From positions 22,861-86,860 of the IMG/VR virus record IMGVR_UViG_3300030451_003654: a DNA stretch of 64,000 nt; one strand, 5' to 3'. This document shows, one piece after another, positions 27,705 through 62,201 of this stretch (the first letter of the stretch is position 1; every line of letters starts with the position of its first letter). The notes beneath the pieces are model-generated. The model saw nothing but the letters and a program-made list of their open reading frames with translations. It was not told the DNA's origin and made no database searches. Source of the stretch: a virus. The position numbers and the translations under genes are program-made.

Positions 27705-28409
27705 TCAGCCTTGTACCTCACTAACAAGGTCATTTAATTCTTCCCAAGACATTTCACTAATATTGTCCATCTTTGCGATTACATCATCAGATAGTGTTGA
27801 GGTTGTTGTTGCTTGTGTAACTTGCTTTGCAATTACAGCATTGTTTGATTCAAGAGATTTGCGAAGTTCAGCAAACTCGTTCTTTAGAGCAGCAACTTCA
27901 GCACTTGCATCATACTTTTCCTTAGCAATCATGTTTGCTTCAGCCTGTAATTCAGCATTGTATCTTGCTTCAAATTCATTCTTAATCAAATCATATGCTC
28001 TTGCTTCTTCCTTTTCAGCCTTAAATTGTGCATATGCCTTTGCGATGTTTTCTTCGCTTAGGTCAAGAGTATCAATACTATTACCCTTGCGAGCAATAAA
28101 TTCACTATACTCAGCGTCAAATCTTCCTGTTAGGTTAGATTCTCCCATTTTTTGTCCTGTTGCGTTGTGTCCATATACAGTAGATTCAGCCGCTTTTGCT
28201 TCCTTATCTTCTTCCATATTTTCTTCATCATCTTCAGCCTTGTAAGACATGGATTCTTCATCATCCATATTTTCTTCATCATCAGCCATATTTTCTTCAT
28301 CCATAGCCATTTCTTCAACTTCGCTATCATCCTTCAAAATCATTTGATTTCGTAGTTGAGCAACAATGTCTTCAAACTCGCCTAATGCTTTACTAATTTC
28401 ATCAGTCAT
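27705..28409 (-). CDS. Capsid scaffold protein from internal start (234 aa)
   Basis: An in-frame ATG at codon 188 of the protease gene has AAAGGAAGTG five bases upstream. A 20-nt stretch around this site (core AAAGGAAGTGAAAAA) is identical to the initiation region of the major capsid gene. The product is the full scaffold: acidic N-terminus, coiled coil (residues about 130-200 of this product) and a C-terminal amphipathic helix with Trp. Separate scaffold made from inside a protease gene is known from lambda (C/Nu3). It lets the virus make more scaffold than protease. The call depends on the ribosome-binding site match. Confidence 0.75.
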   Translation of the reverse strand: MTDEISKALGEFEDIVAQLRNQMILKDDSEVEEMAMDEENMADDEENMDDEESMSYKAEDDEENMEEDKEAKAAESTVYGHNATGQKMGESNLTGRFDAEYSEFIARKGNSIDTLDLSEENIAKAYAQFKAEKEEARAYDLIKNEFEARYNAELQAEANMIAKEKYDASAEVAALKNEFAELRKSLESNNAVIAKQVTQATTTSTLSDDVIAKMDNISEMSWEELNDLVSEVQG

Positions 28410-28970
28410 TTTTTCACTTCCTTTATTTTTATCTTCCTTTACAATTTCAAATTTTGCTTCAGGGTTTATTCCCTCTTCACAAATTGTAATCTCATGGAGT
28501 TCCAATTTATCTATTTCTTTGTATGTACCAATATCAGGGTCATGGACATTATGCTTATGCATGGCTTGTCCACCAATACTAAAAGAGCGAAGTTTGCCTT
28601 TCCTAATATCTCTTGCAACCTCTTTCGCTTTTTCAATGTCGTTCCTCATTTTAATAACTACAAAGAATCCTGTATCATCGCAACCTGTCTTTAACAAATT
28701 ACCTTTTGTGTCTGTGTAGGAATCAATTACTTCTCCTACTTGTACATTTGAATGAGTAATCATTACATTTTTATAATCACTCTTCATGAATTTTTCGGCT
28801 GCTTCGGCTAAAGCATCTAATGTAATTAGGTCGTTCTGTTTATCTACTACATCAACAGAAGCATATCCAGCGATAACCAAATCTTTTCCTGTTCCTTTTA
28901 GAATTGCTAATTCAGAACCTGAAGTATGATGATTACCTAACCTAATAGGTTTAACCTGCAAAGAAGCCAT
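27705..28970 (-). CDS. Prohead protease fused to capsid scaffold
   Basis: A 421-residue protein. Residues 1-175 are an HK97-type prohead protease (herpesvirus assemblin fold). His73 lies in ITHSN and Ser131 in RSFSIGG as expected catalytic residues, followed by ELHEITICEEGINPEA. Residues 188-421 are the scaffold: acidic repeats (EENMADDEENMDDEE), a long coiled coil, and a Trp-containing C-terminal helix (EMSWEELNDLVSEVQG). The protease would process scaffold and capsid arms during head maturation. The gene has a TATA box 26 bases upstream and no Shine-Dalgarno, so it is probably leaderless. The scaffold is also made alone from an internal start. Confidence 0.92.
   Translation of the reverse strand: MASLQVKPIRLGNHHTSGSELAILKGTGKDLVIAGYASVDVVDKQNDLITLDALAEAAEKFMKSDYKNVMITHSNVQVGEVIDSYTDTKGNLLKTGCDDTGFFVVIKMRNDIEKAKEVARDIRKGKLRSFSIGGQAMHKHNVHDPDIGTYKEIDKLELHEITICEEGINPEAKFEIVKEDKNKGSEKMTDEISKALGEFEDIVAQLRNQMILKDDSEVEEMAMDEENMADDEENMDDEESMSYKAEDDEENMEEDKEAKAAESTVYGHNATGQKMGESNLTGRFDAEYSEFIARKGNSIDTLDLSEENIAKAYAQFKAEKEEARAYDLIKNEFEARYNAELQAEANMIAKEKYDASAEVAALKNEFAELRKSLESNNAVIAKQVTQATTTSTLSDDVIAKMDNISEMSWEELNDLVSEVQG
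28415..28423 (-). promoter_or_regulatory. Internal ribosome-binding site AAGGAAGTG for scaffold
   Basis: The Shine-Dalgarno sequence lies five bases before ATG 28409 and inside the protease reading frame, where it encodes KGSEK. The same sequence occurs at 27675-27683 before the capsid gene, with six bases of spacing. The match of more than the core motif suggests duplication or strong shared selection for equal initiation strength. Confidence 0.75.
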
Positions 28971-32065: not shown

Positions 32066-32293
32066 TTACTCACCACTCATTTTTACTACTAATTCGTCTA
32101 TTTCCTTCCAATCCATCTTTGCAATTGTATCAGCACTTGGTACTCTACTTGCTGTTTGAATTGATGGTTTCATTCCTTCTACTTTAACAAGACCTGACTT
32201 TAGTAAAACATTATCAGCATTAAATACTGTTGTTTCTAAGGTCTTGATTCTATCTACTAATTCTTTTAATAATAATGTTAATTCTTCATCCAT
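32066..32293 (-). CDS. Small helical head-module protein ending in a W-E-I-D-E-L-V helix (75 aa)
   Basis: A 75-residue protein with an N-terminal coiled coil (MDEELTLLLKELVDRIKTLE) and a C-terminus SADTIAKMDWKEIDELVVKM. The last part closely resembles the end of the scaffold protein (SDDVIAKMDNISEMSWEELNDLV). The shared ending suggests that both bind the same capsid partner, or that this is a small scaffold or chaperone paralog. It overlaps the following gene by a few bases. There is no enzyme motif. Confidence 0.65.
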   Translation of the reverse strand: MDEELTLLLKELVDRIKTLETTVFNADNVLLKSGLVKVEGMKPSIQTASRVPSADTIAKMDWKEIDELVVKMSGE

Positions 32294-35031: not shown

Positions 35032-36660
35032 TTAACCAACTCTCCTTTCTGTTCTTCTATCAACATTGTTATTTGCTGCTTCTTTAGGTAATCCCATATT
35101 TCTATTAGGTGGACCGACACTCATTGAGGGTTTATTTCTTGTTTGTCCTCCACCTTGCCCTAATAAATTCTGTTCTGCTAATTGTCCTAATTGACTCGCA
35201 TCAATATCTGTTCCTGCATATGGGTCAGTTTCTAATTTTTTATCAGGTTGCTTTTCACCCATAGGTTTTTCTTCTTCTTTTGGCGGAGGCTTTGAATAAA
35301 TAAAGTTTCCATCTTCATCCATATCTACTTCAAATCCTAAATTCTTAATTTGAGTAGCAAGGTTAATTTCAATTTCTCTCCTTCTTAATTCGGCTACATT
35401 ATCTTCTTCTTCAGAACGAAGTAGAATTAAATTCCAATCAGTAATACCAAATTGTTTTAACAAGAATGGGAATAAATATTGATTATATACATTTTGCGCT
35501 AATTCAACAGAACGATTAGTTACAAGAATTTGCATACCCTCGTTATTTAAACCACCGCTTGTAGATGTATCTCCTTGAAAGATTTTACTTACACCATAGA
35601 AAGCACCAATTCTATCTCTCAAATCATCTTTTACATTTATGTAATCCATTTCTTTAAGAGTATTCATAAATTGTACCCATTCAATACTACCTTTACTACC
35701 GCCATCTGTTTCAATACCCATAATAGGAATATAATGTGGGTCTTTCTCTAACTTCTCTTTAACTCCTTTCCAATACTTTACAAGAGATTCCATGTTATTT
35801 GTTTGTACTGCAAGAATACCTCTTGGTGCTCTTGCTTTTGTATAAGAAGTATTTACATAATTTTCCATAGCAATTAATGTAGTAATATGACTCCATAGAG
35901 TTAGAATAGGTGAAAAACCATAAAGTCTTGAAGGGTTATACTTACTCAAGTGCATAACTTCTCCCTCTACAAAGTATTGGTCTTTACCGTGTACTCTATT
36001 TATATAATGTATAGGGTGTAATTTAGAACCACATTCGGGGCAACTTGCTAATGGGTCTGTTTCAAAAATCTCTCTATGTGTTAAACAAGTATAATGAGAA
36101 TTTCCTCTATTACCTTCTTCATCAACATCTATATACATTGTTAATGGGTCGCCTCTATAAATTTCTTTTATTTTATGTAGGGCTACACAACCTTCGTTAT
36201 CTAAGTAATATTCTTTTACTAAAATTAAGAAAGCATCATCAGCAATATTCAAATCAGCCTCTATTTCTTTTAATACATCAATAAATTTTTGCTCAGAACT
36301 ATTTACATACCCATTAAAGAATTTTTCAGCATAAATTTTTTGTTGTTGTGATGGTGCTCTTAAACTCTTACTACCACAATTTCTACAAACATCTGTTTCC
36401 TTTTCATGCTTTGTACCGCAATCATTACATATTTTAAAGAAAGATTTATTCCATTCAAAACCTCTTCTGAATATTTCAGTCTTTAATTGTGTAATACATG
36501 TCCTAACAATAGTAGATTGATTAGCAACATCATATAATACAGGTCCAATAATATGTTGTACATTTCTTTTTTCCTGTATTCCTAAATTATAAACTTCTTT
36601 GGCAAGTGGATTAGGGGTTTTTCTACGAACAAATTTCCCTAAGTAATCTCTTAATCCCAT
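35032..36660 (-). CDS. Portal protein with two zinc-ribbon-like insertions
   Basis: A 542-residue protein in the usual position between TerL and protease. Portal-like segments include PILTLWSHITTLIAMENYVN, then KDDLRDRIGAFYGVSKIFQG, then NRSVELAQNVYNQYLFPFLL, with a Pro/Gln-rich C-terminus. Two Cys-rich motifs are unusual: CNDCGTK...CRNCGSK near residues 70-95, and CLTHRE...CPECGSK near residues 190-215. Each has the spacing of a zinc ribbon (C-x2-C ... C-x2-C, or C/H-type for the second). The dodecameric portal lets DNA pass into the head and organises the packaging motor. GGGGTGGTCTG precedes its ATG. Confidence 0.88.
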   Translation of the reverse strand: MGLRDYLGKFVRRKTPNPLAKEVYNLGIQEKRNVQHIIGPVLYDVANQSTIVRTCITQLKTEIFRRGFEWNKSFFKICNDCGTKHEKETDVCRNCGSKSLRAPSQQQKIYAEKFFNGYVNSSEQKFIDVLKEIEADLNIADDAFLILVKEYYLDNEGCVALHKIKEIYRGDPLTMYIDVDEEGNRGNSHYTCLTHREIFETDPLASCPECGSKLHPIHYINRVHGKDQYFVEGEVMHLSKYNPSRLYGFSPILTLWSHITTLIAMENYVNTSYTKARAPRGILAVQTNNMESLVKYWKGVKEKLEKDPHYIPIMGIETDGGSKGSIEWVQFMNTLKEMDYINVKDDLRDRIGAFYGVSKIFQGDTSTSGGLNNEGMQILVTNRSVELAQNVYNQYLFPFLLKQFGITDWNLILLRSEEEDNVAELRRREIEINLATQIKNLGFEVDMDEDGNFIYSKPPPKEEEKPMGEKQPDKKLETDPYAGTDIDASQLGQLAEQNLLGQGGGQTRNKPSMSVGPPNRNMGLPKEAANNNVDRRTERRVG

Positions 36661-38060
36661 CAGACCACCCCACTTTCCATACTATCCATCAATTGCATCT
36701 TACAATTATCATGGTATTTAACAACTACTTCGGGGTCTATATCATATTTTTCAAATTCTTTAACGCCTTGACCTCTTGAATCCTTCCAATTCTCATATTT
36801 AATTAGTTTAAATATTTCCTGTAATCGGGGTTTAGCCCATTCTTCTCTCTTAAAATTTTTCTTGATTCTAATCGCCTCTTGAATTAATCTACCCTGTGTT
36901 TGTTTCATTCTAAGATGTGGTATGCACTTTTCTAAAATTGTTGTGATGTCGTCTTGACTGTAAAAATTTAACCTGTGTTGGCTTCTACTATTTTCTCCTA
37001 CTTTTTGGTCTAAGTGTAATCTCCCACATTTTAATTCCTTTTCTAATTCTTGGAAAAATGCTTTACCTCTTTTACCCGTAGCAATCATTCCTACTCTTGG
37101 TGCTAAAGAAGAATCCATTGTAATGTAGCCATCGGAATCAATAAATCCCGCTACATAGGAATATAAATCTTTCTTAATTAAATGTTTCACTAAGTAGTAC
37201 TCATTATCTACTTTAGTAGCACCTATCTTCATTAACATTTTTGAAATAGATTGGGGTGTTGAAATTTTAGAATGTCCTTTAGATAATCTGGAGTGAATTT
37301 CATTAGAAGATAATCCTTGATTATTACAAATAATTTCTCTTACACTCTTTTCAATCATTTCTTTCTTAGATTTTCTTATAGATTGATGAGGTATATCTTT
37401 TAATAATTTTCTTAATTCATTTCTACTTTCTCTTAAAATAATATAATTATTTGAATATTGTGTGCCGTAATCTAATGATTTCATTTCTAAATCGCTTTCC
37501 CACATCTTACAACATAATTCTATGATACTCTTTCTTGTTTCACCATCTTTAATATTATGCAACTTTTGTATTTGTGAAGGGTTATAACCTAATCTTTTAA
37601 ATCCTGATTGATATGGTTTTAACCAATAAATTGTATCTAAAGATTTTTGTAAATATTCTTCATACGCAGTAATTAAATGGTCTATACCTTTTGAAATTTT
37701 AATCTTTTCTTCACCTTTAAAATTTCTTCTCATATCTCTTAATTCCTTAACTAAATCAGGAATATTCTTATTAGATACAATAGGTTCTACGGGAAGTTGT
37801 TGAATATAATCACTTGCTTCAGTTAAATTAATTTGTAATGTTTTAGAAATATCTTTTAGAATATCTACCTCATTACCGTATTGAGTGGATAACCATTGAC
37901 CTACATTACTCTTGTTAAACTGTTCTTTAATTTTATCTTTAACAGGTTTAACTTCTTGGTCTAACATTCTTTTTTCATCTTCTACTCTTTTAATTTCTTG
38001 AACATCTCGTTCTAATTCTTCTATATCAATATCATCATCCTGTTTAAAGATTAATACCAT
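36660..38060 (-). CDS. LAGLIDADG-type endonuclease with winged-helix region
   Basis: A 466-residue protein, read from ATG 38060 with GGAGGTGC upstream inside the TerL 3' end. Residues about 237-292 look like a winged helix (IICNNQGLSSNEIHSRLSKG, SISKMLMKIGATKV). Residues about 303-312 are VAGFIDSDGY, the LAGLIDADG dodecapeptide with catalytic Asp residues, followed by a typical fold to about residue 395. The N-terminal ~230 residues are helical and unassigned. Freestanding enzymes of this type cut specific DNA sites and spread as selfish genes. This one lies between TerL and portal, so it may instead serve the virus, for example in processing DNA for packaging. Confidence 0.8.
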   Translation of the reverse strand: MVLIFKQDDDIDIEELERDVQEIKRVEDEKRMLDQEVKPVKDKIKEQFNKSNVGQWLSTQYGNEVDILKDISKTLQINLTEASDYIQQLPVEPIVSNKNIPDLVKELRDMRRNFKGEEKIKISKGIDHLITAYEEYLQKSLDTIYWLKPYQSGFKRLGYNPSQIQKLHNIKDGETRKSIIELCCKMWESDLEMKSLDYGTQYSNNYIILRESRNELRKLLKDIPHQSIRKSKKEMIEKSVREIICNNQGLSSNEIHSRLSKGHSKISTPQSISKMLMKIGATKVDNEYYLVKHLIKKDLYSYVAGFIDSDGYITMDSSLAPRVGMIATGKRGKAFFQELEKELKCGRLHLDQKVGENSRSQHRLNFYSQDDITTILEKCIPHLRMKQTQGRLIQEAIRIKKNFKREEWAKPRLQEIFKLIKYENWKDSRGQGVKEFEKYDIDPEVVVKYHDNCKMQLMDSMESGVV

Positions 38061-39462
38061 AAAAAGCACCTCCCTTTGTTGGTGTAGTAGGGGTTGAACT
38101 AAACAGACTACCACTATCTATATCTAAAAATGTATCGGAAAAAGTCTTTGTTGCATAATTGGCTAAAGCAAGAGCAATTACTATATCATCATGTGCGCCT
38201 ACACCTTCAATTTTACCATGTGCATTAATTCCAAATGCGCCTAATTCTTGAGTAATCATATTAGTTACAGACTTAGATGCTTCATTTTGCATAGGTAAAA
38301 CTATCTTCCCATTATCAATATTCATTTGTAAATTTAATATAATTTCTTCCTTTTTCTTTCTACTCATAGTAAATTCTCTAACAGGAAAATCTGAAATATT
38401 TTTCAATTCCATAGCAAAAGCCTTAGCAAATGTATTTGTTTCAATCATGACTACTTCAGGCTTATACCTTCTACACAATTCCATTATGTGTTGTATGTGT
38501 TCTCTAAAGTCAAGTCCTTTTGCCCTAAACATATGAACCACTTGTTTATTCATGTTTTCATCAACCTCTAAGACCATCATTACAGTATAATCCCCATTTG
38601 CCGAAATAGCAGGGTCATATCCTATATAATATTGAAAACCCTCTCTCGCAACGCTCTCAAGCGAAGCATAGGGATTCTTACACGCTTTAATTGCATCAGG
38701 TTGAAAAAGCATAGTATTTGTACTGATAGGTACGCAAAGATATTCTCTTGTAAATTTAGCCGAGCCTATTTCTACCTTTCTCTCTTCAAGCATTTCAAGA
38801 CTCCAACGATTAGCCCATAAAGCCGTTCCATCTTGCTTAATTGCAGGGTATCTTGAAACGGTATATGCGGGGTTTTCTTCTAACTGTACAAATATATCTG
38901 TATATGTAAAGGGTGTTCCGACCATTCTCAAAGAAGCCGTATGGTGAAGTGTAGGAATCATATCTCCCCAAAACCAATCTGTAACTCTTTGAATAGCGGT
39001 CATACTAAATTCTTTCAAAGGGTCGTCAATAATAATTTCTTGAGGGTGCAATCCACGAATCTGAGAACCTACTGAACGCTCTAATATCTCATTACCATTT
39101 GTTAAACGCATAGCCCCAACTGCCCAACCGCCTCTCGGTTTGAATCTTTTTAATTGTGGGATATTAGTGAACATTCTATCTATGTCTTTCATATGTACCA
39201 TTGTTTGTTTATGATTAGAAGAAATGTAAAGCATTTGATATGGTGGTTCTTGAAAACATAATTGATAAACACACCATGAATGAAAGAAAACAGATTTTCC
39301 GTGGTCTCTTGAACAAATAATAACTGTCCTTGAAGTATTATTTACAAGGTCTAACCATTCCTCATGAAAGTCGGCTAACTCATACCCTAATACCTTTTCA
39401 AAAAAATAAGGAAAATTTCCTTTGGACATCTTCAAATCCATTTCTGTTAAAAAATCATCCAT
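38044..39462 (-). CDS. Terminase large subunit
   Basis: A 472-residue protein with complete motor and nuclease domains. Walker A is SRDHGKS (residues 51-57), Walker B EIIIDDP (Asp146, Asp147), and a coupling motif VGTPFT follows. The RNase H-like nuclease has Asp283 (IGYDPAI), Glu341 (VMIETN) and Asp425/426 (GAHDDIVIA). It pumps DNA into the prohead through the portal and cuts it. ATG 39462 is chosen over 39471 because AGGTGATTCTA lies directly before it. It overlaps the LAGLIDADG gene by 17 bases. Nothing suggests an intein. Confidence 0.95.
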   Translation of the reverse strand: MDDFLTEMDLKMSKGNFPYFFEKVLGYELADFHEEWLDLVNNTSRTVIICSRDHGKSVFFHSWCVYQLCFQEPPYQMLYISSNHKQTMVHMKDIDRMFTNIPQLKRFKPRGGWAVGAMRLTNGNEILERSVGSQIRGLHPQEIIIDDPLKEFSMTAIQRVTDWFWGDMIPTLHHTASLRMVGTPFTYTDIFVQLEENPAYTVSRYPAIKQDGTALWANRWSLEMLEERKVEIGSAKFTREYLCVPISTNTMLFQPDAIKACKNPYASLESVAREGFQYYIGYDPAISANGDYTVMMVLEVDENMNKQVVHMFRAKGLDFREHIQHIMELCRRYKPEVVMIETNTFAKAFAMELKNISDFPVREFTMSRKKKEEIILNLQMNIDNGKIVLPMQNEASKSVTNMITQELGAFGINAHGKIEGVGAHDDIVIALALANYATKTFSDTFLDIDSGSLFSSTPTTPTKGGAFYGINL

Positions 39463-49822: not shown

Positions 49823-50875
49823 TTAGGGTCTATACTTAAGCGCATCATCAAAATTATTTGTAACCCACTCATCAGCAATATCTACTATTTTTTCCATCAT
49901 ATATTCAGCCTGTATATCAAAATGGTCTATATCGGCTCTAATTCTATCTTTCCACTCTTGAGGATAATTAGAATATTTTACAATATTAGTTTTTTTAAAT
50001 CCCGCTAATAATTGTAGTCCGTAATTAGGTATTTTATCTCCTGAAGCCTTTAAAGCATTACTATCATATGTATTTAATTTGTGTGCAACTCCAGCACTCC
50101 AAAAATCAAGCGATGGAATAAATGATTCCCATCCTTTAGAATGTATTAACCATAATAATCTACAAGCATCCTTTCTTGATATATTTTCAGATTTAGTATA
50201 AATAAAATCTACTATAAAAATTTGCATAGTTTGGTAATTTGTTCTATCATTAGGTATAAATTCCATACTACTATCAACTAATTTAGACATATGACTTCCT
50301 TTAAATTTATTACCTACTCTCCTTCCACTAAAATTATAACTAAAATCAGCAGTACTAAAATCATATTTTCCTCCTTCATCAGGATAAAAACTAAAAGCAT
50401 TATATTGTTTAACAAAACTTTCAATTACATCTGTTATTCTACTATAATATTCTAAACAATCATCGTTTGGTTCTTCTTCAGGAACAGGCTCATCTTCTTC
50501 ATCTTCTTCCTCATCAGGTAATTGTTCTGTATCAGTTAATAGTTTTGTTCTTGCTTGAGTTACTGTTTCGGCTTTTCTAATATGTGAAGTGACTTTACCA
50601 ATCACTTTATTTGCTAAACCTGAATTAGATATAATTCTATTACCTATTGATGTAAGCCAAGTTTCAAGCCTAACATTAACCCATGAAGATATATCTTGCG
50701 GTCTAATATCAGTTTGCTTAAGATTTTCTACAAATTTATTTTTTATATCCATATCTGTTACATAAAATTTAGAGCCTTCAGGTAATTCTTTAACTGCGTC
50801 TAATAAAGCATTTTTAAACTCTTGAAAATAAATGCTATGTAATTTTCTTTTCTTTAGAATAGTATTCCAACTCAT
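49823..50875 (-). CDS. Tagged protein of the PLPD paralog family (350 aa, MSWNTILK)
   Basis: A 350-residue protein starting MSWNTILKKRK. Unlike its relatives, an extra domain of about 90 residues follows the tag. Residues about 107-145 hold a divergent copy of the family signature (ARTKLLTDTEQLPDEEED, then DDCLEYY), followed by the variable family domain (VIESFVKQYNAFSFYPDEGG and onward). The family is otherwise found at 55.4-59.7 kb, so this is an outlying member about 5 kb away. Function unknown; see the paralog finding. Confidence 0.65.
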   Translation of the reverse strand: MSWNTILKKRKLHSIYFQEFKNALLDAVKELPEGSKFYVTDMDIKNKFVENLKQTDIRPQDISSWVNVRLETWLTSIGNRIISNSGLANKVIGKVTSHIRKAETVTQARTKLLTDTEQLPDEEEDEEDEPVPEEEPNDDCLEYYSRITDVIESFVKQYNAFSFYPDEGGKYDFSTADFSYNFSGRRVGNKFKGSHMSKLVDSSMEFIPNDRTNYQTMQIFIVDFIYTKSENISRKDACRLLWLIHSKGWESFIPSLDFWSAGVAHKLNTYDSNALKASGDKIPNYGLQLLAGFKKTNIVKYSNYPQEWKDRIRADIDHFDIQAEYMMEKIVDIADEWVTNNFDDALKYRP

Positions 50876-52143: not shown

Positions 52144-53187
52144 TTAACCCCTCCTTTTAAACCAACCGTGAAGTCCATACTTTTCTTCTAAACTAAAAGT
52201 ACCTTTTCTTCTTTTCTTTTTCTTTCCCTTTTTACCTGCTCGTCTTTTGTAATCTTTACACGCTGAACAAGTTGGGCGACATCTTCTTTTTTTACCCTTA
52301 GAAGCATCTGCTCTACCACAAGACCTACGCTTTTTTCCTTTACCACATGAAGAACAATCAATCCATTCTTTGAATATTATTCCTTCCCATGATTTAGATA
52401 TATCACTATCAAGATATTCTTCAGCAATTAAGATTCCTATTTCTTCTCCTGTTTCTATATCACTTGGGTAATGACTACCCATTAATACTCTTGATAAAGC
52501 AATTGCCTCAGCCATGTTAAATAATTCTTCTTCGTTTTCAGGATGTTCTTCAGCAAGAACCTTTGCTAACGCAAACGCTTCTATTGCGTGTCCACTTGGA
52601 AAAGATGGAGAATCATCAGTATCTGTCATTGATTTAATTTCTTCAGATACTTCATATGGTCTTGGTCTTTTATATTTCATTTTTAATTGAATAGTATGAA
52701 TATCTACATCTCTAATAAAATCTTCCCAATCATTCATATCTTCCCCTACAATGTCTAACATCATTTGATGATTATTTTTATCTAAATCATTTTTAACATC
52801 TTCATCCATTTCATATTTTTTCATTACATTTAATACTTCAGGAATTTCTGATTCATTATCGGGAAATGATAATTCAGGAAACTCTACATTAAACGATGGT
52901 TTGCTATTTAGTAATTTTTTTTTACTATTAGATAATTCTTGCATCCATTTTGATTCAGATTTCTTTACTGAATTTCCCCAATTAGCAGCACCTTTTTTTC
53001 TACATTGAACTAATGCGCCACTTGCATAAGCACTGGGCCACTTTTTATATCTTCTTCGCACTTTGTAATAACAAGCATCTCTTTTACCTTTAGATTTACC
53101 ATCTCTTCTTGTCTTTTTCTTGGCTCTTTTAGCACCTGATTTTCTACGGGCTTTGCTTTTCTTTTGAATTATATCCTCCCAATTCAA
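52144..53187 (-). CDS. Tagged PAP2-type phosphatase between basic Cys/Lys-rich domains (347 aa)
   Basis: A 347-residue protein, read from TTG 53187 with GGTGATTATT upstream; this gives (M)NWEDIIQKK. Residues about 10-75 are basic and contain WPSAYASGALVQCRKKGAAN, a motif I recall from many viral proteins. The middle has all PAP2/haloperoxidase motifs: K-x6-RP (Lys169, Arg176-Pro177), PSGH (197-200) and SR-x5-H-x3-D (Ser232 to Asp243). A soluble lipid- or phosphate-ester phosphatase is expected. Residues 265-273 are KSWEGIIFK, an internal tag copy, followed by a Cys/Lys-rich domain to the end. Confidence 0.75.
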   Translation of the reverse strand: MNWEDIIQKKSKARRKSGAKRAKKKTRRDGKSKGKRDACYYKVRRRYKKWPSAYASGALVQCRKKGAANWGNSVKKSESKWMQELSNSKKKLLNSKPSFNVEFPELSFPDNESEIPEVLNVMKKYEMDEDVKNDLDKNNHQMMLDIVGEDMNDWEDFIRDVDIHTIQLKMKYKRPRPYEVSEEIKSMTDTDDSPSFPSGHAIEAFALAKVLAEEHPENEEELFNMAEAIALSRVLMGSHYPSDIETGEEIGILIAEEYLDSDISKSWEGIIFKEWIDCSSCGKGKKRRSCGRADASKGKKRRCRPTCSACKDYKRRAGKKGKKKKRRKGTFSLEEKYGLHGWFKRRG

Positions 53188-53192
53188 AATAA

Positions 53193-54044
53193 TCACCACA
53201 ATTTTTTACACGCTAAACATTTAGGAGTTGTAATTCTACCTTTACATTGGTCGCAGTTATGTCTTGCTTTAAAATTAGCCCTGCGTTTTTTATTGGTATG
53301 TGTTCCCCCACCTCTATTCTTTCCTTTTCCTTTATAATTACCATAACCTTTAGCACCTGCATGAATCTTTTTACCTTCATGCGTTAGCATCATAATTTTT
53401 TTACCTGCTCTATCTGAAGGATAAACACGACCTACTCTCATATCTTCTTTTTTCTTAGGTTTGCGCTTTTTTGTTTTGCGCTTTCTTGTTTTGCGCTTTT
53501 TTCTTTTTATGATATTTTCCCAACTCTTTTTTATAAAACGCTCATTATACAATTTGAATGATTCAATTTCATCCACAGTTAGGGGTCTTCCTTCTTCTTC
53601 TTCAATTTCTGATAAAGTAGGATTGCGCCCATACATATTATCATAAATTTTAAAATAATCTACAATCATTTCATTTATAGTTGCTTCAGGTCTTATATCC
53701 TTTTGCTTTCTGTTCATGCCCCCTCTTATCTTGAATTGTTCCTCTTTGTTTCTAATATTATCAATTTTATTATATGTAGGTAAATTAGAATTTTGTGTTA
53801 ATCTACTTCTCATTTTTGCATGAAAATTTAATTCTTCTCTAAGCGTTCCTTCATCATCATATCTTCTTATAAGATTTTCAAATCTTGTATGATATTTTTG
53901 TTTATCTTTACGATTTAATGATTCATATTCTTCATCAGAAATAATCATACTTTCATACATATCTTCAGTAGCATAATCTTTACCAAATCTTACAATATCT
54001 TTAATATTTCTTATTTTAGTTTTTAAAATATCCTCCCATGACAT
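53193..54044 (-). CDS. Tagged two-part basic protein with internal second tag and zinc-ribbon end (283 aa)
   Basis: A 283-residue protein starting MSWEDILKTK. Residues 10-165 are helical. Residues about 172-181 are KKSWENIIKR, a second copy of the tag inside the protein. It is followed by a Lys/Arg repeat (KRKKRKTRKRKTKKRKPKKK) and a domain (GKKIMMLTHEGKKIHAGAKG, then KKRRANFKARH) that resembles DUF5754-like small basic viral domains. The end is CDQC ... CLAC, a zinc-ribbon pattern. It looks like a fusion of two tagged genes. DNA binding is likely. Confidence 0.7.
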   Translation of the reverse strand: MSWEDILKTKIRNIKDIVRFGKDYATEDMYESMIISDEEYESLNRKDKQKYHTRFENLIRRYDDEGTLREELNFHAKMRSRLTQNSNLPTYNKIDNIRNKEEQFKIRGGMNRKQKDIRPEATINEMIVDYFKIYDNMYGRNPTLSEIEEEEGRPLTVDEIESFKLYNERFIKKSWENIIKRKKRKTRKRKTKKRKPKKKEDMRVGRVYPSDRAGKKIMMLTHEGKKIHAGAKGYGNYKGKGKNRGGGTHTNKKRRANFKARHNCDQCKGRITTPKCLACKKLW

Positions 54045-55436: not shown

Positions 55437-56219
55437 TCACATTTTAGTAGTAATTATACTCATGAAATAGTGGTACACTCTATTAAAGACCGATTCATCT
55501 TCAATCTTATCTTTTTGATTTTGGTATAAATATTCGATAACATCCCTTATTAATTTATAGTAAAATTCTTGTCGTAATTCTTTATTACCTATATAGTTAA
55601 AAAATAAATTAAATTTGTCAAGATTTTTATTAATTTCTTTTTCCCATTCATCTAAAATAATATGTTTAGTTGTTTGTAAGTTAATGTCTTTATCGGCATC
55701 TGCTTGTAAAACAATAATATATTGAGTCATAATCCAAGGTATTACATAAGGGTATCTTGTTTCCATTGATTCGCTTTCAGGTATTGTACCGAAAGAAATA
55801 TCCATATTAAATTCAGGTTCATTTCCACTATGCCCAAAGACATTTAAATCCCACAAATTTCCATATTCATTATAATTTAAACCAAATTCAGTAAAGCCCT
55901 TTGCATAGAAATGATATTCTTTTTCATTTTCAAGCATTCTTTTTATTTCACACCAAAAATCTTCATCTTGAGATAGAGCATCTTTCATTCTAAAAATATT
56001 ATTAAATGATTTAATATAAGGTTCATACATTATTCTTTTTAACTCTAATAACCATTCATAACATTCATTTTCATCGTCATCAGGTAAGGGTTGATTGTCC
56101 GACCTTAATTTTCCTCTAAGGGAAGTGCTTGGTTTATTAGTTAAAATTGTTGATGAGGATTGTGCTGGAATACCATAACTCGTTTTTTGATTCTTTTTTA
56201 TAACATCTTCCCAATCCAC
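55437..56219 (-). CDS. Tagged PLPD-family paralog (260 aa, MDWEDVIK)
   Basis: A 260-residue protein starting MDWEDVIKKN. A Ser/Thr-rich linker leads to the family signature LRGKLRSDNQPLPDDDENEC at about residues 33-52, then the variable domain with EDFWCEIKRMLEN (Trp-Cys motif) and an alpha/beta body. Its C-terminal ~90 residues are helical and unlike the relatives. It overlaps the previous gene by one base. Function unknown. Confidence 0.7.
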   Translation of the reverse strand: MDWEDVIKKNQKTSYGIPAQSSSTILTNKPSTSLRGKLRSDNQPLPDDDENECYEWLLELKRIMYEPYIKSFNNIFRMKDALSQDEDFWCEIKRMLENEKEYHFYAKGFTEFGLNYNEYGNLWDLNVFGHSGNEPEFNMDISFGTIPESESMETRYPYVIPWIMTQYIIVLQADADKDINLQTTKHIILDEWEKEINKNLDKFNLFFNYIGNKELRQEFYYKLIRDVIEYLYQNQKDKIEDESVFNRVYHYFMSIITTKM

Positions 56220-57415
56220 TATAATTCCCTCCTTTTTCTTTCAATAACGCCTCTTGCAAAATGTTCTAATTCACCACAAAATCTAACTAATCCTGTTCTA
56301 AAGCCACGAGTTTTTCCTACTTGTCCTAAAGCGATAAACCATGATATAGAATGTCCATAAGAATCACCAATTTTAGTCTTGATTCCTCCACCATCTACTA
56401 TATGTTGCCCATTTCTAAAATCATAAAAAGCACTTGTTTCTAATAATTTACAAAACCATTCATTAGAGGATGGATATTGTGTATCTAAATAATGATAAAA
56501 TCTAAGACTTATATCAAAACCTACATCACTATTATGTTTTGCCATATAACAGATTGATTGACCCTGCCCTCTTTGTTCTTCAAAAGAAGTTTGAGTGTAC
56601 CATTGGTCGTCATCATAACGCTGAATCCAATCTTTAATTTCTTCTACTGCTTCTCTCCATAATTGTTCACAGTCTTTATCATCTTCTTCATCGGGTAATG
56701 GGTCATCATCAGTTCTTAATTTTTGACGACCTACTTGAATTTGGCTCTTTTTGAAATCAAATTTCTTACTCCCATGTAATTGTATGGCGGATAAAAATCT
56801 ATCTGCCATCAAATCACCTCTTTTAGGATTTAGTGTCAATACACTTTTTTCAAAATTTCTTAACTCTCTTGCGAATCGTGCTACATTTCTCCACCAATCA
56901 AATAACATTTGTTCATCAAAAGATTGACCTGCGCTTCCAAAGCCTTCTTCAGCATCAAACATCATTGTAAATACATTAGGCATATCACCATCAGGCGTTA
57001 CCATTTCTACTTCAAGAACACACCTATTATTTTGTAATTGTAGTTCGCAGATAAAATATAATTTTACATCTTTTTTTGTTGGTGGTATTAATTCACCTTT
57101 ACTTGTTCCTCTATATGTAACTTTACCTCCGAGTCCAGCAACATAAACCCTTCCAGCATCACTTGTATGAGTATTAAATGATAAGGTTTCTAAAAATTCA
57201 CACCATTGTTCAGGAGTAAGAAAATCTCTATAACCTAAATCTAATAATAAAGTTTTATTAGGGTCTATAATATTACCCATCTTTTGAAATTGTCTAACAA
57301 GATAATCAAATTTTTGAAAACAATCTTCATCGTCATCATCAGGTAATGGATTATTATCAGACCTTAACTTTTGCCTTGCTTGGCTTACCTGCACTTTAAT
57401 AATATCTTCCCACAT
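56219..57415 (-). CDS. Tagged PLPD-family double paralog (398 aa, MWEDIIK)
   Basis: A 398-residue protein made of two family units. Unit one runs from MWEDIIKVQVSQARQKLRSD through PLPDDDDEDC (residues about 22-34) to about residue 210, with LTPEQWCEFLETLS. Unit two begins at about residue 218 with FDFKKSQIQVGRQKLRTD, then PLPDEEDDKDC and SSNEWFCKLLETSAF. The start of unit two aligns to the start of the neighbour gene at 57885 (KDVLKNQIQVGRQKLRSD), but its tag has decayed to FDFKKS. This is an in-frame fusion of adjacent duplicates. Confidence 0.75.
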   Translation of the reverse strand: MWEDIIKVQVSQARQKLRSDNNPLPDDDDEDCFQKFDYLVRQFQKMGNIIDPNKTLLLDLGYRDFLTPEQWCEFLETLSFNTHTSDAGRVYVAGLGGKVTYRGTSKGELIPPTKKDVKLYFICELQLQNNRCVLEVEMVTPDGDMPNVFTMMFDAEEGFGSAGQSFDEQMLFDWWRNVARFARELRNFEKSVLTLNPKRGDLMADRFLSAIQLHGSKKFDFKKSQIQVGRQKLRTDDDPLPDEEDDKDCEQLWREAVEEIKDWIQRYDDDQWYTQTSFEEQRGQGQSICYMAKHNSDVGFDISLRFYHYLDTQYPSSNEWFCKLLETSAFYDFRNGQHIVDGGGIKTKIGDSYGHSISWFIALGQVGKTRGFRTGLVRFCGELEHFARGVIERKRREL

Positions 57416-57885
57416 TAGGCATACCTCTCTATAACGCTAAGTAATTCATCAAATTGTTCTAAAGTATCAAATATTTCTAATTCATAAACATCATAACCTG
57501 CTTGGTCTGATACACCTTCGTAAAAAAATCCTATAATTATCTTATCTTCTGATGGTACATGGGTTAAATATGCACAATCTGTTCTTTTTATAATATTATT
57601 ACGGGAATATAAACTCACACTATCATCTATACTAACCCTAACAGCAATTCTATATTTTTTTAAATTTCTAAAAAAGTCTAAAAATTTACAAAACATTTCA
57701 TCTGGAACTCTATCCAACCTAATAAATCTATAACTCTTATACTTAGTATTAGCCTCTATCATAGCATCTAAATACATAAACTTTCTTTTACAATCCTCTT
57801 CTTCATCATCAGGAAGAGGTTGGTCGTCAGACCTTAACTTTTGGCGACCTACTTGTATTTGATTTTTTAACACATCTTTCCACAT
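57415..57885 (-). CDS. Tagged PLPD-family paralog (156 aa, MWKDVLK)
   Basis: A 156-residue protein starting MWKDVLKNQIQVGRQKLRSD, with PLPDDEEEDC at about residues 23-33 and VPDEMFCKFLDFFRN (Cys conserved, Trp replaced by Phe). The variable domain is a compact alpha/beta fold (RIAVRVSIDDSVSLYSRN, KIIIGFFYEGVSDQAGYDVY). It is the shortest member of the family. It shares its last base with the next gene. Function unknown. Confidence 0.75.
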   Translation of the reverse strand: MWKDVLKNQIQVGRQKLRSDDQPLPDDEEEDCKRKFMYLDAMIEANTKYKSYRFIRLDRVPDEMFCKFLDFFRNLKKYRIAVRVSIDDSVSLYSRNNIIKRTDCAYLTHVPSEDKIIIGFFYEGVSDQAGYDVYELEIFDTLEQFDELLSVIERYA

Positions 57886-57886
57886 T

Positions 57887-58525
57887 CTAAATCCCCCTTG
57901 TAAATTCTCTAATATTATTCATAAATGTTGGGTCGGTTGGGAAAGATACTTTTGCATTACTTTCAATAGTATTTTTGATAGCCTCATGCATAAATTCTAA
58001 TTCTTCCATAACCCCTATGGTTAAATCGGGCATCGAAAATCTAAGAGCCACATGGTATTTTGAATCAATATCAAGAGCAGTAAAAATATTAATATCTATT
58101 TCTACTTTATCCTCATCTGGATTATCTCTTTCTCTATCTAAATAAAATCTAAAAAGTACTTTTAGTCCATCACCAAATGTTTCTTTTGTATCAAATCTTG
58201 AGGTCATGTATAAAACTTCAGGTTTTCTATGTATTATAGTTAAACTATGATGTTCATAGTCAGAAAATCCTGCTAATATTTTACACCATTGGTCTTCATC
58301 ATATAAATTTCTTGAAAATGCCTCTACTGTTGCAACGGGAACATTTCTTTTATTAGCATAAGTATTACCTTGAAAAGTTACCACATGTTTTAAAATTTCT
58401 CTAAATATTTTATCTACAATAGGGAAACATTCATCATCATCATCATCAGGTAGTGGTTCTTTATCAGTACGCAACTTCTGTCTTGAAGTAGTAATCTGAA
58501 CCTTTAGTATATCTTCCCAATTCAT
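57887..58525 (-). CDS. Tagged PLPD-family paralog (212 aa, MNWEDILK)
   Basis: A 212-residue protein, read from ATG 58525 with AGGTGATTGGCT upstream; the longer read from 58531 adds only two residues. It starts MNWEDILKVQITTSRQKLRT, then PLPDDDDDEC at about residues 25-34 and YDEDQWCKILAGFS. The body (SLTIIHRKPEVLYMTSRFDT, YHVALRFSMPDLTIGVMEEL) is alpha/beta. It overlaps its upstream neighbour by four bases. Function unknown. Confidence 0.75.
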   Translation of the reverse strand: MNWEDILKVQITTSRQKLRTDKEPLPDDDDDECFPIVDKIFREILKHVVTFQGNTYANKRNVPVATVEAFSRNLYDEDQWCKILAGFSDYEHHSLTIIHRKPEVLYMTSRFDTKETFGDGLKVLFRFYLDRERDNPDEDKVEIDINIFTALDIDSKYHVALRFSMPDLTIGVMEELEFMHEAIKNTIESNAKVSFPTDPTFMNNIREFTRGI

Positions 58526-59202
58526 AGCCAATCACCTAATTTTATTTCTCTAAAATTACTTTTATATTTCATTGGTTCGGTAGCATTTTTAAAAGGAAGA
58601 TGAAAATCAAGAATATCAATATTAAAACCTAATATTATTTCACGAGTATTAGTTTTAAAAACTACAAACCTACTCGTTTTCATAGGTTGTAACATATCTC
58701 CATTATTTCTTAACCTTGCTCTATATTTACTTGAATGAGTAACAGTATAAGGTGTTCCTTCTATTATTTTATCGAGTTGCTCATGTGAAGTATTAATTTT
58801 AGATACCCAATTTTCTAATTCGGCTAATACTAAACACGCTTCTTCAAAAAGTAAGTCTTTTAAACTACGGTCATATATATTAAGTCTTATACCATGATGA
58901 TAATGACCCATGTAATCAAAAATTATCGGATTACCAAATTCAATATATGCATAAAATGTTGATGCATTTCCTCTTACACCTAATTCTGATACTAAATTTT
59001 CTTCAATATAATTTAACTCTTCCTCACTTCCATTTACTAATTCCCATTCTAATTTTGGTTTCCACATAGCAAATTTATCTATATAATCAATTATTCGTTC
59101 AAGGCAATCATCCTCATCTTCATTATCTGGTAAAGGTTCATCATCTGTTCTTAATTTCTGTCTTGCAACAGAAACCTGCACCTTTAACAAATCTTCCCAC
59201 AT
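58522..59202 (-). CDS. Tagged PLPD-family paralog (226 aa, MWEDLLK)
   Basis: A 226-residue protein starting MWEDLLKVQVSVARQKLRTD, with PLPDNEDEDDC at about residues 23-33. It lacks the Trp-Cys motif of its relatives. The body (ASTFYAYIEFGNPIIFDYMG, HHGIRLNIYDRSLKDLLFEE, RFVVFKTNTREIILGFNIDI) is alpha/beta. The signature region is far better conserved between family members than the domain it precedes. Function unknown. Confidence 0.72.
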   Translation of the reverse strand: MWEDLLKVQVSVARQKLRTDDEPLPDNEDEDDCLERIIDYIDKFAMWKPKLEWELVNGSEEELNYIEENLVSELGVRGNASTFYAYIEFGNPIIFDYMGHYHHGIRLNIYDRSLKDLLFEEACLVLAELENWVSKINTSHEQLDKIIEGTPYTVTHSSKYRARLRNNGDMLQPMKTSRFVVFKTNTREIILGFNIDILDFHLPFKNATEPMKYKSNFREIKLGDWL

Positions 59203-59204
59203 AA

Positions 59205-59690
59205 TTAATACCTACTTTCATCGTATCTTTTCCCATCTAATCTATCCAATACTCTACTTCCTGAAGTCCAATCTACTTTAGGATTATAATTAATAGGGTC
59301 GGGCAATTCTTCTCCATCTTCTACAATAATAAATTTATAAGAAGGTGCATTTATCATCATCGCTATACCATCATATACAACAGCATGTCCACCAAATAAA
59401 TTTCCTTCAACAGTCCAAGGTCGAGGATTTCCTTTTTCATACATTATTCTTTCTATTCCATCATACGCATCTTGTCTTGTATCAAATAATTCTTTAGGGT
59501 AATGAAACCACTCACCTCTCATTCCTGGCGAATTATACTGTTCAGTTACAAACACTTTATATTTTACATCCTCATCTTCAGGTAATGGTTCAGCATCTGT
59601 ACTAACCTTAGTTTCCGTTTTAACTTTAGAACCTAAAGATGGTTTAGGTGTTTGTGTTGGACCAAATCTCTTTAAAATATCTTCCCACAT
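59205..59690 (-). CDS. Tagged protein with partial PLPD signature (161 aa, MWEDILK)
   Basis: A 161-residue protein starting MWEDILKRFGPTQTPKPSLG. Residues about 23-39 hold KVKTETKVSTDAEPLPEDED, a partial copy of the family signature lacking RQKLR and Cys. The body (YKVFVTEQYNSPGMRGEWFH, WTVEGNLFGGHAVVYDGIAM, YKFIIVEDGEELPD) is alpha/beta and not obviously related to the others. It shares a base with its upstream neighbour. Function unknown. Confidence 0.68.
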   Translation of the reverse strand: MWEDILKRFGPTQTPKPSLGSKVKTETKVSTDAEPLPEDEDVKYKVFVTEQYNSPGMRGEWFHYPKELFDTRQDAYDGIERIMYEKGNPRPWTVEGNLFGGHAVVYDGIAMMINAPSYKFIIVEDGEELPDPINYNPKVDWTSGSRVLDRLDGKRYDESRY

Positions 59691-60307
59691 TAAACATTCC
59701 TTCCTAATCTTCTAAGAAGTGCATCATAACTTATGCCCTCTTTTGTTGCTTGTTCTTTTAAATCTTCAATCTTATACATTTTTTGATTAATGTATAAATA
59801 TCCTGGATTTGCTCTTTCAACTTCAGCAATAGTTTCTTCAGCAGTTTGTCTATCCTCACCTGAAGTATCTCTCAAATCTTTTGTTTCTCTAATATTTTCT
59901 TTTACATTTCTTGCTACTGCATCTGCAACAATAGTAATTAGTTTAGTTTCACTACTTACTACACTATCTCTTGTTAAAGTTACAGATGGTCCGAGTAATC
60001 TTTCAAAGTAATAATCACCTGATTCATCCTCCATCATAATAATTTCAAATACTTCCCTTTGCTTAGTATCTTTATGTCTATATGAAATTCTAATTTGTAA
60101 TATCTCATCTGAAATATACCTCTCTCTAACATTGATATTAGAAACTCTATCCTCTCCCTCTCTCATGGCTTGAGTAATTTTACCATAGTATTGACTTGCT
60201 GATGCTCTAACTGCTGCTCTTAATCTTTCAACAAAATTATCTACATCTCTTACAATTAGATTTTCGCCTTGATTATTTTTAATTTTTAATATTTCTTCCC
60301 ATGTCAT
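59690..60307 (-). CDS. Tagged unknown protein (205 aa, MTWEEILK)
   Basis: A 205-residue protein starting MTWEEILKIKNNQGEN. The body is alpha/beta with a basic helix (NFVERLRAAVRASASQYYGK), strands (EILQIRISYRHKDTKQREVF) and two C-terminal helices linked to a small last domain (LYINQKMYKIEDLKEQATKE, DALLRRLGRN) that looks like a compact helix-turn-helix. It overlaps the metalloprotease gene by four bases. Unknown function. Confidence 0.65.
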   Translation of the reverse strand: MTWEEILKIKNNQGENLIVRDVDNFVERLRAAVRASASQYYGKITQAMREGEDRVSNINVRERYISDEILQIRISYRHKDTKQREVFEIIMMEDESGDYYFERLLGPSVTLTRDSVVSSETKLITIVADAVARNVKENIRETKDLRDTSGEDRQTAEETIAEVERANPGYLYINQKMYKIEDLKEQATKEGISYDALLRRLGRNV

Positions 60308-61062
60308 AATATATATCTCCCATATTCTTGTAATAAGTAAGGTTCTTCATCAATTAATTTTTCCTTTATCTTATTATACATTTTCATTGTTGCTGGATTT
60401 CTTCTCGCTTTTGCTTTTACTTGAGGATGTCTAAGTACTGCTAATAATCTACCATTAGGATTATCAGGCATTTGTACTGTATATGCAATATACTCTTCCA
60501 TTAAATTATTACCTTCTGATATACCTGCGGATTTATCTTTATACGGGTAATCTAATATTTTTGATGCTTGATGTCCAAACTCATGAGCCAAAGTATCATA
60601 TATTTTTTCTTGTTGTTCATAATAATACTGTATCATCATCGGGTGTTTTTTGGTAGCCAAATTAACTACTACTGCATCATCTTCAGGATTATAATATCCC
60701 ATCGCTTGTCTTGGTTCATATCTAAAATCAGCCGTCATCATTTTTGAACTTAATTCATTTAACATATCGTTAAAATCTTCTAAATCATAATGTTCTTCAA
60801 TTCTACTCTTATCAGTATTATAGACTACCTGCACTCTATCTAAAATTTTAGAAATAACTGAATCATATTTTGCTAATACTTCTTTTGTTGTCGGACCTGC
60901 TATATCTAATAAATCTTGTAAATCATTATGAAGTCTATCTATTTCAGGAGTCCAATATTCATATCTACCACCTTTGTAAAAACCCATAACATCTTCTAAG
61001 TCATCAAGAATATCATCCATATTTGATGGAGTCAAACTCTTAAGGACTTCAAACCATGTCAT
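60304..61062 (-). CDS. Tagged zinc metalloprotease (252 aa, MTWFEVLK)
   Basis: A 252-residue protein starting MTWFEVLKSLTP. Residues 160-164 are HEFGH, the HExxH zinc site with catalytic Glu161. It is followed after 25 residues by NLMEEYIAY, whose Glu189 or Glu190 is a likely third ligand, in the manner of gluzincins. The N-terminal ~110 residues are helical and the C-terminal end is basic. Peptide-bond cleavage is the expected reaction. With its tag it may be packaged in the virion and released into the host cell, or it could act on virion proteins. Confidence 0.75.
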   Translation of the reverse strand: MTWFEVLKSLTPSNMDDILDDLEDVMGFYKGGRYEYWTPEIDRLHNDLQDLLDIAGPTTKEVLAKYDSVISKILDRVQVVYNTDKSRIEEHYDLEDFNDMLNELSSKMMTADFRYEPRQAMGYYNPEDDAVVVNLATKKHPMMIQYYYEQQEKIYDTLAHEFGHQASKILDYPYKDKSAGISEGNNLMEEYIAYTVQMPDNPNGRLLAVLRHPQVKAKARRNPATMKMYNKIKEKLIDEEPYLLQEYGRYIL

Positions 61063-61841: not shown

Positions 61842-62201
61842 TTAATTATACATATTAAAATCAGATTTGTTTTCTTTTGATTTAGATGACATCATTTCTT
61901 TCATTTGATTAACAACTTGATTTTCAAAGTCTGTATTTGGTTCTTCACCTCTATGTATATCTGCAAAATGGCGTATTTTATTGTTATATTGTTTAACTAA
62001 CTCTACAAAGTCTTCTCTTAAATCATTAAAAAATTGCTGTATCTTTTCAGCATTTCTTGGTGGTATTCCTGCTGTTCTTGTAAAGAAAGTATAAAAGTCA
62101 TTCCAATCTGCGAAATGATTTTCAAGTTTTTTCATAATATCTTCTAATTCTTCTTTATTATTATCTTCAGGCGGGTTATTTATGTAGAAATTGAACACCA
62201 T
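61842..62201 (-). CDS. Unknown acidic helical protein (119 aa)
   Basis: A 119-residue protein starting MVFNFYINNPPEDNNKEELE. It is helical (MKKLENHFADWNDFYTFFTR, KIQQFFNDLREDFVELVKQY) and mostly acidic, with a Lys/Ser-rich end. It lacks the tag and is separated from the tagged cluster by 166 non-coding bases that carry promoter sequences, so it may be a separately expressed early gene. GAGGACAACCTT precedes the ATG. Function not recognised. Confidence 0.6.
   Translation of the reverse strand: MVFNFYINNPPEDNNKEELEDIMKKLENHFADWNDFYTFFTRTAGIPPRNAEKIQQFFNDLREDFVELVKQYNNKIRHFADIHRGEEPNTDFENQVVNQMKEMMSSKSKENKSDFNMYN

What the first reader, a model, noticed from the sequence alone, without database searches (positions are those of the whole stretch)
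55437..59690. Diversifying paralog family with a conserved linker motif RQKLR[ST]D..PLPDD..D[DE]C
Seen: seven units in six genes share tag, VQ/NQ-type spacer, RQKLR[ST]D, PLP[DE] with an acidic run and Cys, while the following domains differ strongly (some share x-[WF]-C-x2-L). A further member lies at 49823. The order of conservation is reversed from usual: linker conserved, domain variable. Inference: tandem duplication with fast change, as in host-interaction or anti-defence proteins; the linker may be a second docking or cleavage site.
Basis: partly seen in the sequence, partly recalled or inferred. Interest (0 to 1): 0.7.

Follow-up and report, generated by a model that had tools for sequence, protein, structure and literature searches.

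The report
Virus-private linker code on injected proteins
A family of marine viruses, probably of archaea, carries strings of fast-changing small proteins that each begin with a short linker; every virus uses its own linker sequence on all of them, and when viruses diverge all copies are rewritten together, as if they were a private address label read by one partner.

Summary
Six units in five genes (55437-59202, minus strand) carry R[QG]KLR[ST]D..PLPD-acidic-Cys. Variants sit in the 59205 and 49823 genes. In related genomes whose core genes are 67-99% identical (terminase 86-100%), the linker is a different sequence in each lineage, yet shared by all units of that lineage, even by proteins with unrelated domains (59205 family). 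Five linker types were found; each signature occurs 4-11 times in its own genome and never in the other lineages. Codons at identical linker residues are saturated within a genome (0.46-0.54) but not between viruses (0.72-0.81). So the copies are older than the virus split and were recoded in parallel, not by recent gene conversion. Units are beads on a string: one N-terminal MSWEDILK-type tag per polypeptide, one linker per domain, up to five beads per ORF. The bead is one very divergent alpha/beta family with two invariant Cys and no fold match. Best reading: T-even-internal-protein-like cargo; the tag is probably a capsid-targeting signal, the linker a virus-private docking or processing site co-evolving with one fast-evolving partner. 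The prohead protease is too conserved to be that partner.

The parts
56061..56117 (-). linker RGKLRSDNQPLPDDDENEC in the 55437-56219 gene
55437..56219 (-). single-bead protein, degenerate tag MDWEDVIKK (GTG start), linker, two-Cys bead domain
   Evidence: ortholog in G002 has MNWEDIIKNQIQVGRQKLR
57320..57376 (-). linker RQKLRSDNNPLPDDDDEDC, first unit of the 56219-57415 gene
56669..56728 (-). linker RQKLRTDDDPLPDEEDDKDC, second, tag-less unit of the same gene
56219..57415 (-). two-bead protein: tag, linker, bead, linker, bead
   Evidence: AF2 model of bead 1
57790..57846 (-). linker RQKLRSDDQPLPDDEEEDC
57415..57885 (-). single-bead protein (156 aa)
   Evidence: AF2 model
58427..58483 (-). linker RQKLRTDKEPLPDDDDDEC
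57887..58531 (-). single-bead protein; likely start is the ATG just inside the TTG
59104..59163 (-). linker RQKLRTDDEPLPDNEDEDDC
58522..59202 (-). single-bead protein with the most divergent domain (34% identical to its G002 ortholog while the 15-residue linker core is 93% identical)
59568..59609 (-). variant linker KVSTDAEPLPEDED on a non-bead domain
   Evidence: its orthologs carry the linker type of their own genome (G003 KAKRKKKPLPTA, G006 DVENIKPTPKRPKP)
59205..59690 (-). 59205-family protein: tag, spacer QTPKPSLGSK, linker, unrelated domain without Cys pair
50456..50551 (-). variant linker RTKLLTDTEQLPDEEEDEEDEPVPEEEPNDDC between an N-terminal domain and a bead-like two-Cys domain
49823..50875 (-). 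49823-family protein: tag, N-terminal domain, linker, bead-like domain
61842..62201 (-). untagged 119-aa acidic protein (MVFNFYIN...), upstream of the array, present in every linker-bearing virus examined; candidate partner
27705..28970 (-). prohead protease (Peptidase_S78) whose C-terminus SEMSWEELNDLVSEVQG resembles the N-terminal tag
32066..32293 (-). 75-aa head-block protein ending AKMDWKEIDELVVKMSGE, a tag-like C-terminus conserved in its 48 homologs

Best explanation
The array encodes virion cargo built as beads on a string: one N-terminal capsid-targeting tag per polypeptide, then [linker + small domain] repeated one to five times. SHOWN: the linker is a separate, portable element, found once in front of each domain, including domains that are not beads. 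It is held by selection within a virus and rewritten together in all copies when viruses diverge. INFERRED: such parallel rewriting means a single trans-acting partner reads the linker and co-evolves with it. The partner is most likely a fast-evolving virion protein (22184, 40100, 42676, 32296 or 48049 gene product, or the 61842 protein), so the linker works as a virus-private docking or processing label. INFERRED: the tag brings the polypeptide into the prohead, the linker places each domain or frees it, and the domains are ejected with the DNA and bind host targets, probably defences. This is the role of the T-even internal proteins.
For: Linker signatures are genome-private: 8, 8, 4, 8, 7 and 11 hits in their own lineage and none in other lineages, with a fifth type in G006. 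Within-genome linker identity is 66-87%; between lineages it is 20-42%. Orthologous pairs G000/G003 (49823, 59205 and two beads) have linkers only 29-43% identical, while linkers inside G003 are 80% identical and inside G000 66%, across unrelated domains. Codon identity at identical linker residues is 0.46-0.54 within these genomes, against 0.72-0.81 for core genes between G000 and G003. That excludes recent copying. The orthologs themselves (49823, 59205, 55437) show 0.66-0.77, so they are not distant imports. Fine-scale case: after LPEK, Ser/Thr in 8 of 8 units of G005 and Asp/Glu in 7 of 7 of its sister G031 (p = 1.6e-4). Tag is lost but linker kept at internal beads, and in the G003 fusion of the 59690 and 59205 proteins. 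Beads were shuffled between G005 and G031. Linker is coil at pLDDT 53-58 and the domain starts at the Cys. Domain dN/dS is 0.67. The tag resembles the C-termini of the protease and of the 32066 protein. T-even internal proteins share only a capsid-targeting sequence and are diverse defence inhibitors (PMC3012670, PMC12373910).
Against: No virion proteomics, so packaging and ejection are not shown. No partner identified; the 61842 protein co-occurs with the linkers, but so do other genes of this clade, and its net charge does not track linker charge. Only about eight genomes carry the system. Whole-locus exchange with unsampled relatives could imitate parallel recoding, although ortholog codon identity argues against it. 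No anti-defence family matched.
Confidence: 0.5

Rival explanations
1. The linker is the cleavage site of the prohead protease, as in T4, where a capsid-targeting propeptide is cut off by gp21; cutting frees the beads.
For: One linker per domain in polyproteins; a disordered segment before the fold; a prohead protease of family S78 is present; T4 internal proteins are processed this way (PMC7411985).
Against: The protease catalytic domain is nearly identical in G000, G003, G004 and G005 while the linkers are completely different. No scissile residue is common: LP[DE] in three types, mostly KP[DE] in G004, PTPKR in G006. Most tagged proteins lack any linker.
Confidence: 0.15
2. The linkers are kept alike by gene conversion or serve as recombination seams for shuffling domains; their protein sequence has no role.
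For: Beads are reordered and fused between G005 and G031; one pair of linkers shares 17 identical bases.
Against: Codons at identical residues match no more than random draws from genome usage, so DNA similarity is low where protein similarity is high. Only one of 28 pairs in G000 shares 13 or more identical bases. The linker spacers of G000 and G002 follow locus orthology, showing no recent conversion.
Confidence: 0.1
3. The linker docks to a host factor (chaperone, protease or defence protein) that differs between hosts; each virus lineage has tuned all its linkers to its host.
For: Explains one trans-acting partner and rapid change without any change in conserved virion proteins; the array is one of the fastest-evolving parts of the genome.
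Against: Hosts are unknown. The viruses share nearly all other genes. The same linker is needed on unrelated domains, more natural for assembly or processing than for several effector functions.
Confidence: 0.2
4. Plain lineage-specific duplication: the linker is a structural cap of the domain inherited from a recent founder in each virus.
For: Tandem arrays with lineage-specific copy numbers.
Against: The linker also occurs on the unrelated 59205 domain, which carries the linker type of its own genome. It is predicted disordered. Synonymous saturation shows the copies are old. One-to-one orthologs exist across viruses.
Confidence: 0.05

Closest known systems
T-even phage internal proteins IPI, IPII, IPIII and related Ip loci (PMC3012670, PMC12373910)
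   Same: Small proteins sharing only an N-terminal signal, with unrelated or hypervariable mature domains, several per genome, fast turnover between close relatives.
   Different: Here there is a second shared element, the virus-private linker. Several domains can follow one tag in a polyprotein, and the linker rather than the tag changes between viruses. No sequence homology was tested or claimed; packaging is not shown.
Giant-phage ejection proteins, e.g. SPN3US E proteins and the C-terminal targeting propeptide of its prohead protease (PMC7411985)
   Same: A protease C-terminus proposed to target the prohead core, like SEMSWEELNDLVSEVQG here; many internal head proteins.
   Different: SPN3US uses long propeptides cut at AxE by one protease; here short tags and no shared cut motif.
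Encapsulin cargo-loading peptides (own knowledge)
   Same: A short terminal peptide loads unrelated cargo into an HK97-fold shell; the MSWEDILK-type tag could work like this.
   Different: No viral genome, no second linker code.

Membership tests
T-even internal proteins | shared N-terminal signal on otherwise unrelated small proteins | tested here: met
   about 20 tagged proteins in the window with different domains; the signal itself was not compared with the T4 sequence
T-even internal proteins | hypervariable mature domain between close relatives | tested here: met
   domain dN/dS 0.67 against 0-0.31 for neighbours; orthologs 34-91% identical in G002
T-even internal proteins | removal of the signal by the prohead protease at a conserved site | tested here: inconclusive
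   no cleavage motif common to the five linker types, protease core conserved; cleavage just after the tag cannot be tested here
T-even internal proteins | present inside the virion and injected | not testable with these tools
   needs virion proteomics
T-even internal proteins | inhibit host defence enzymes | not testable with these tools
   no PADLOC, Pfam or NCBIfam match of significance
Prohead protease Peptidase_S78 (27705 gene) | family profile match | tested here: met
   PF04586 E 1.9e-10, PF14550 E 2.7e-7; PHROG head maturation protease
Magroviruses / archaeal tailed viruses | archaeal-type replication genes and HK97-type head genes | tested here: met
   AAA clamp-loader-like protein, PolB, ATP-dependent ligase; capsid protein nearest to haloarchaeal tailed viruses
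Magroviruses / archaeal tailed viruses | sequence relationship to a named magrovirus or to a host | tested here: inconclusive
   no close terminase relative among named phages; the only MAG hits look like contaminants
Known protein folds | Foldseek match of the bead model | tested here: not met
   no match at E <= 0.001 in PDB or viral library; models of medium confidence, pLDDT 65 and 62

The most novel reading that the evidence does not exclude
A virus-private 'password': each virus marks all its internal cargo domains with one linker sequence read by its own cognate partner. Cargo of a co-infecting relative is thus not loaded or processed, and the code is under pressure to diverge between kin viruses, changing in all copies together.
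Probability: 0.25. Interest if true: 0.88.

Novelty: new variant of a known kind. Interest (0 to 1): 0.72.

Why it matters
Parallel rewriting of one short motif across several non-homologous genes, without recent DNA copying, is a rare and clean signature of co-evolution with a single partner. It makes the loading or processing of injected viral proteins testable in a group of uncultured, probably archaeal, viruses. It also gives a simple marker (tag + genome-private linker) for finding fast-evolving candidate anti-host domains.

Tried and rejected
Prohead protease as the co-evolving partner: catalytic domain nearly invariant. Tagged zinc metallopeptidase (60304) as linker protease: no tagged zincin in linker-bearing G003, G005 and G031, but present in linker-free G012 and G013. 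Gene conversion: codons saturated. Charge complementarity between linker and the 61842 protein: none. Fold matches: none. Family libraries: nothing for beads, 59205, 49823. Linker-like sharing in the other loci of relatives: none beyond the linker-bearing set, though many loci are partial (profile search, window scan). The G006 linkers were missed by the first profile search, so absence elsewhere is provisional. Host by cellular genomes: uninformative. Scripts label L125 'G021' and L127 'G022'; the tool handles are G031 and G032. The G006 pattern was written too narrowly and caught one of its four units; the other three are read directly.
Full report
WHAT IS THERE. The window is 64 kb of an 86.9-kb virus record with head genes of a tailed virus: terminase, portal, S78 prohead protease, SU10-type capsid protein. 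Its replication genes include family B polymerase, a clamp-loader-like AAA protein and an ATP-dependent ligase. The capsid protein is nearest to haloarchaeal tailed viruses, so an archaeal, magrovirus-like virus is likely but not proven. About 20 late proteins begin with a tag of the form M(S/T/N)W-x-[DE]-[ILV]-[IL]-K. Five consecutive genes (55437-59202) contain six units R[QG]KLR[ST]D-xx-PLPD-acidic run-Cys. The 59205 and 49823 genes carry variants.

ANATOMY. Searches with the unit profile found homologous arrays in relatives whose terminases are 91-100% identical. G005 has five beads in one ORF across the contig ends (259 + 870 aa, overlapping), then two, then one. G004 has eleven beads, four of them in one 821-aa ORF. 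G003 has two beads plus fusions. A flanking gene (61842 family) led to two more contigs with arrays, L125 and L127, and then to G006. In all of them there is in general one tag per polypeptide and one linker per domain; internal beads keep the linker and lose the tag. The same happens in G003, where the 59690 and 59205 proteins are fused: the tag of the second protein has decayed, its linker stays. An alignment of 40 beads has three invariant residues: a Pro in the linker, the Cys that ends the linker, and a second Cys in a [DE]xx[WFL]C element. The G006 beads, read later, lack that exact linker Pro context but keep both Cys. AlphaFold models of two beads agree on helix - helix (second Cys) - beta strands - C-terminal helix; the fold starts at the first Cys, and the tag and linker are low-confidence coil. 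Confidence is medium (pLDDT 65 and 62) and no fold match was found.

THE LINKER IS PRIVATE TO EACH VIRUS. G000 and G002: RQKLR[ST]Dxx PLP[DE]. G005 and G031 (= L125): [RK]Q[NS][VI][KR]T.RxPLPEK. G003: GK.KRKKKPLPDF. G004 and G032 (= L127): SQ[RK]TSS[RK]DYVKPDE. G006: LDLDIRPTPKR. Each signature is absent from the other lineages. Identity within a genome is 66-87%, between lineages 20-42%. Core proteins of the same viruses are far closer: terminase 86-100%, portal 78-99%, protease 69-84%.

THE LINKER FOLLOWS THE GENOME, NOT THE DOMAIN. The 59205-family protein, whose domain is not a bead, carries KVSTDAEPLPED in G000, KAKRKKKPLPTA in G003 and DVENIKPTPKRPKP in G006. Each time this is the type of that genome's beads, although its upstream spacer (QTPKPSLGSK) is conserved. 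The 49823-family orthologs do the same. For four orthologous pairs between G000 and G003, linker identity is 29-43%. Among linkers of different loci within G003 it is 80%, within G000 66%. Between the sisters G005 and G031, the residue after LPEK is Ser/Thr in 8 of 8 and Asp/Glu in 7 of 7 units (p = 1.6e-4, treating units as independent), although six bead pairs are orthologous.

NOT GENE CONVERSION. At identical linker residues, paralogs in one genome share codons no more often than random draws from genome usage: 0.46 in G000, 0.49 in G003; 0.51 and 0.54 with the wider set. Core genes between G000 and G003 share 0.72-0.81 (dS about 0.4-0.7), and the orthologous 49823, 59205 and 55437 proteins share 0.66-0.77. 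So the linker copies separated before the two viruses did, and were recoded in parallel afterwards. Replacement of the whole locus from an unsampled lineage is the remaining escape; the ortholog values make it unlikely.

SELECTION. Between G000 and G002 pooled dN/dS is 0.67 for domains, 0.33 for linkers and tags, 0.04-0.31 for neighbours and about zero for terminase. The linker differences are few, so its estimate is rough.

MECHANISM. The tag resembles the C-terminus of the prohead protease (SEMSWEELNDLV) and of the 75-aa 32066 protein (AKMDWKEIDELV), conserved in its 48 homologs. In SPN3US a C-terminal propeptide is proposed to target the protease to the prohead core (PMC7411985). T-even internal proteins share a capsid-targeting sequence and are otherwise diverse inhibitors of host restriction (PMC3012670; PMC12373910). 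I infer that the tag loads these proteins into the head and that the beads are injected cargo. The linker, portable and coordinately rewritten, is best read as a site for one trans-acting partner. The prohead protease is an unlikely partner. Candidates are proteins present in all linker-bearing viruses, fast-evolving and not detected by BLAST in linker-free G012 and G013: 22184, 42676, 48049 and the 61842 protein, with 32296 and 40100 as weaker candidates. Whether the linker docks or is cut is open; I favour docking or processing by a virus-encoded partner.

NOVELTY. The general kind (tagged, hypervariable internal cargo) is known from T-even phages. The second, genome-private linker, its use in polyproteins and its coordinated rewriting were not found in the literature searched or in any family library.

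Noticed in passing
window 27705-28970 and 32066-32293: The C-termini of the prohead protease and of a 75-aa head-block protein carry a W-[ED]-[ED]-[IL] motif like the N-terminal tag, conserved across dozens of relatives; a likely common docking helix of the head core.
   Followed up: partly
L125:18194-19888: 565-aa tagged chimera: GNAT acetyltransferase domain (Pfam E 8e-5), linker, bead, and a C-terminal part that looks to me like an ADP-ribosyltransferase (not tested).
   Followed up: partly
L010:16663-18396: The sister's 49823 protein has about 230 extra residues inserted just before the linker (WAYSWDVDSGCIWN-type sequence), absent from the window's copy: domain gain or loss at the linker.
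   Followed up: no
window 52144-53199: PAP2 phosphatase with a tag and a second internal tag-like SWEGIIFK; residues 38-88 are about 70% identical to small proteins of T4-like cyanophages.
   Followed up: no
window 61842-62201: 119-aa untagged acidic protein found in every linker-bearing virus examined; no family match.
   Followed up: partly
window 60304-61062, L224, L236, L241, L246: Tagged zincin-like proteins (HExxH) recur in several of these viruses with little sequence similarity.
   Followed up: partly
window 29012-31519 and L007:6839-8356: Two different ATP-dependent DNA ligase-like genes, one in the late head block (by eye) and one in the replication block.
   Followed up: no
window 36660-38114: An ORF next to the terminase gene that looks like a LAGLIDADG homing endonuclease (by eye), conserved in position in relatives.
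   Followed up: no
L248-L250: MAG contigs labelled Altibacter and Maricaulis carry close relatives of this terminase; probably virus contigs misbinned into bacterial MAGs.
   Followed up: no
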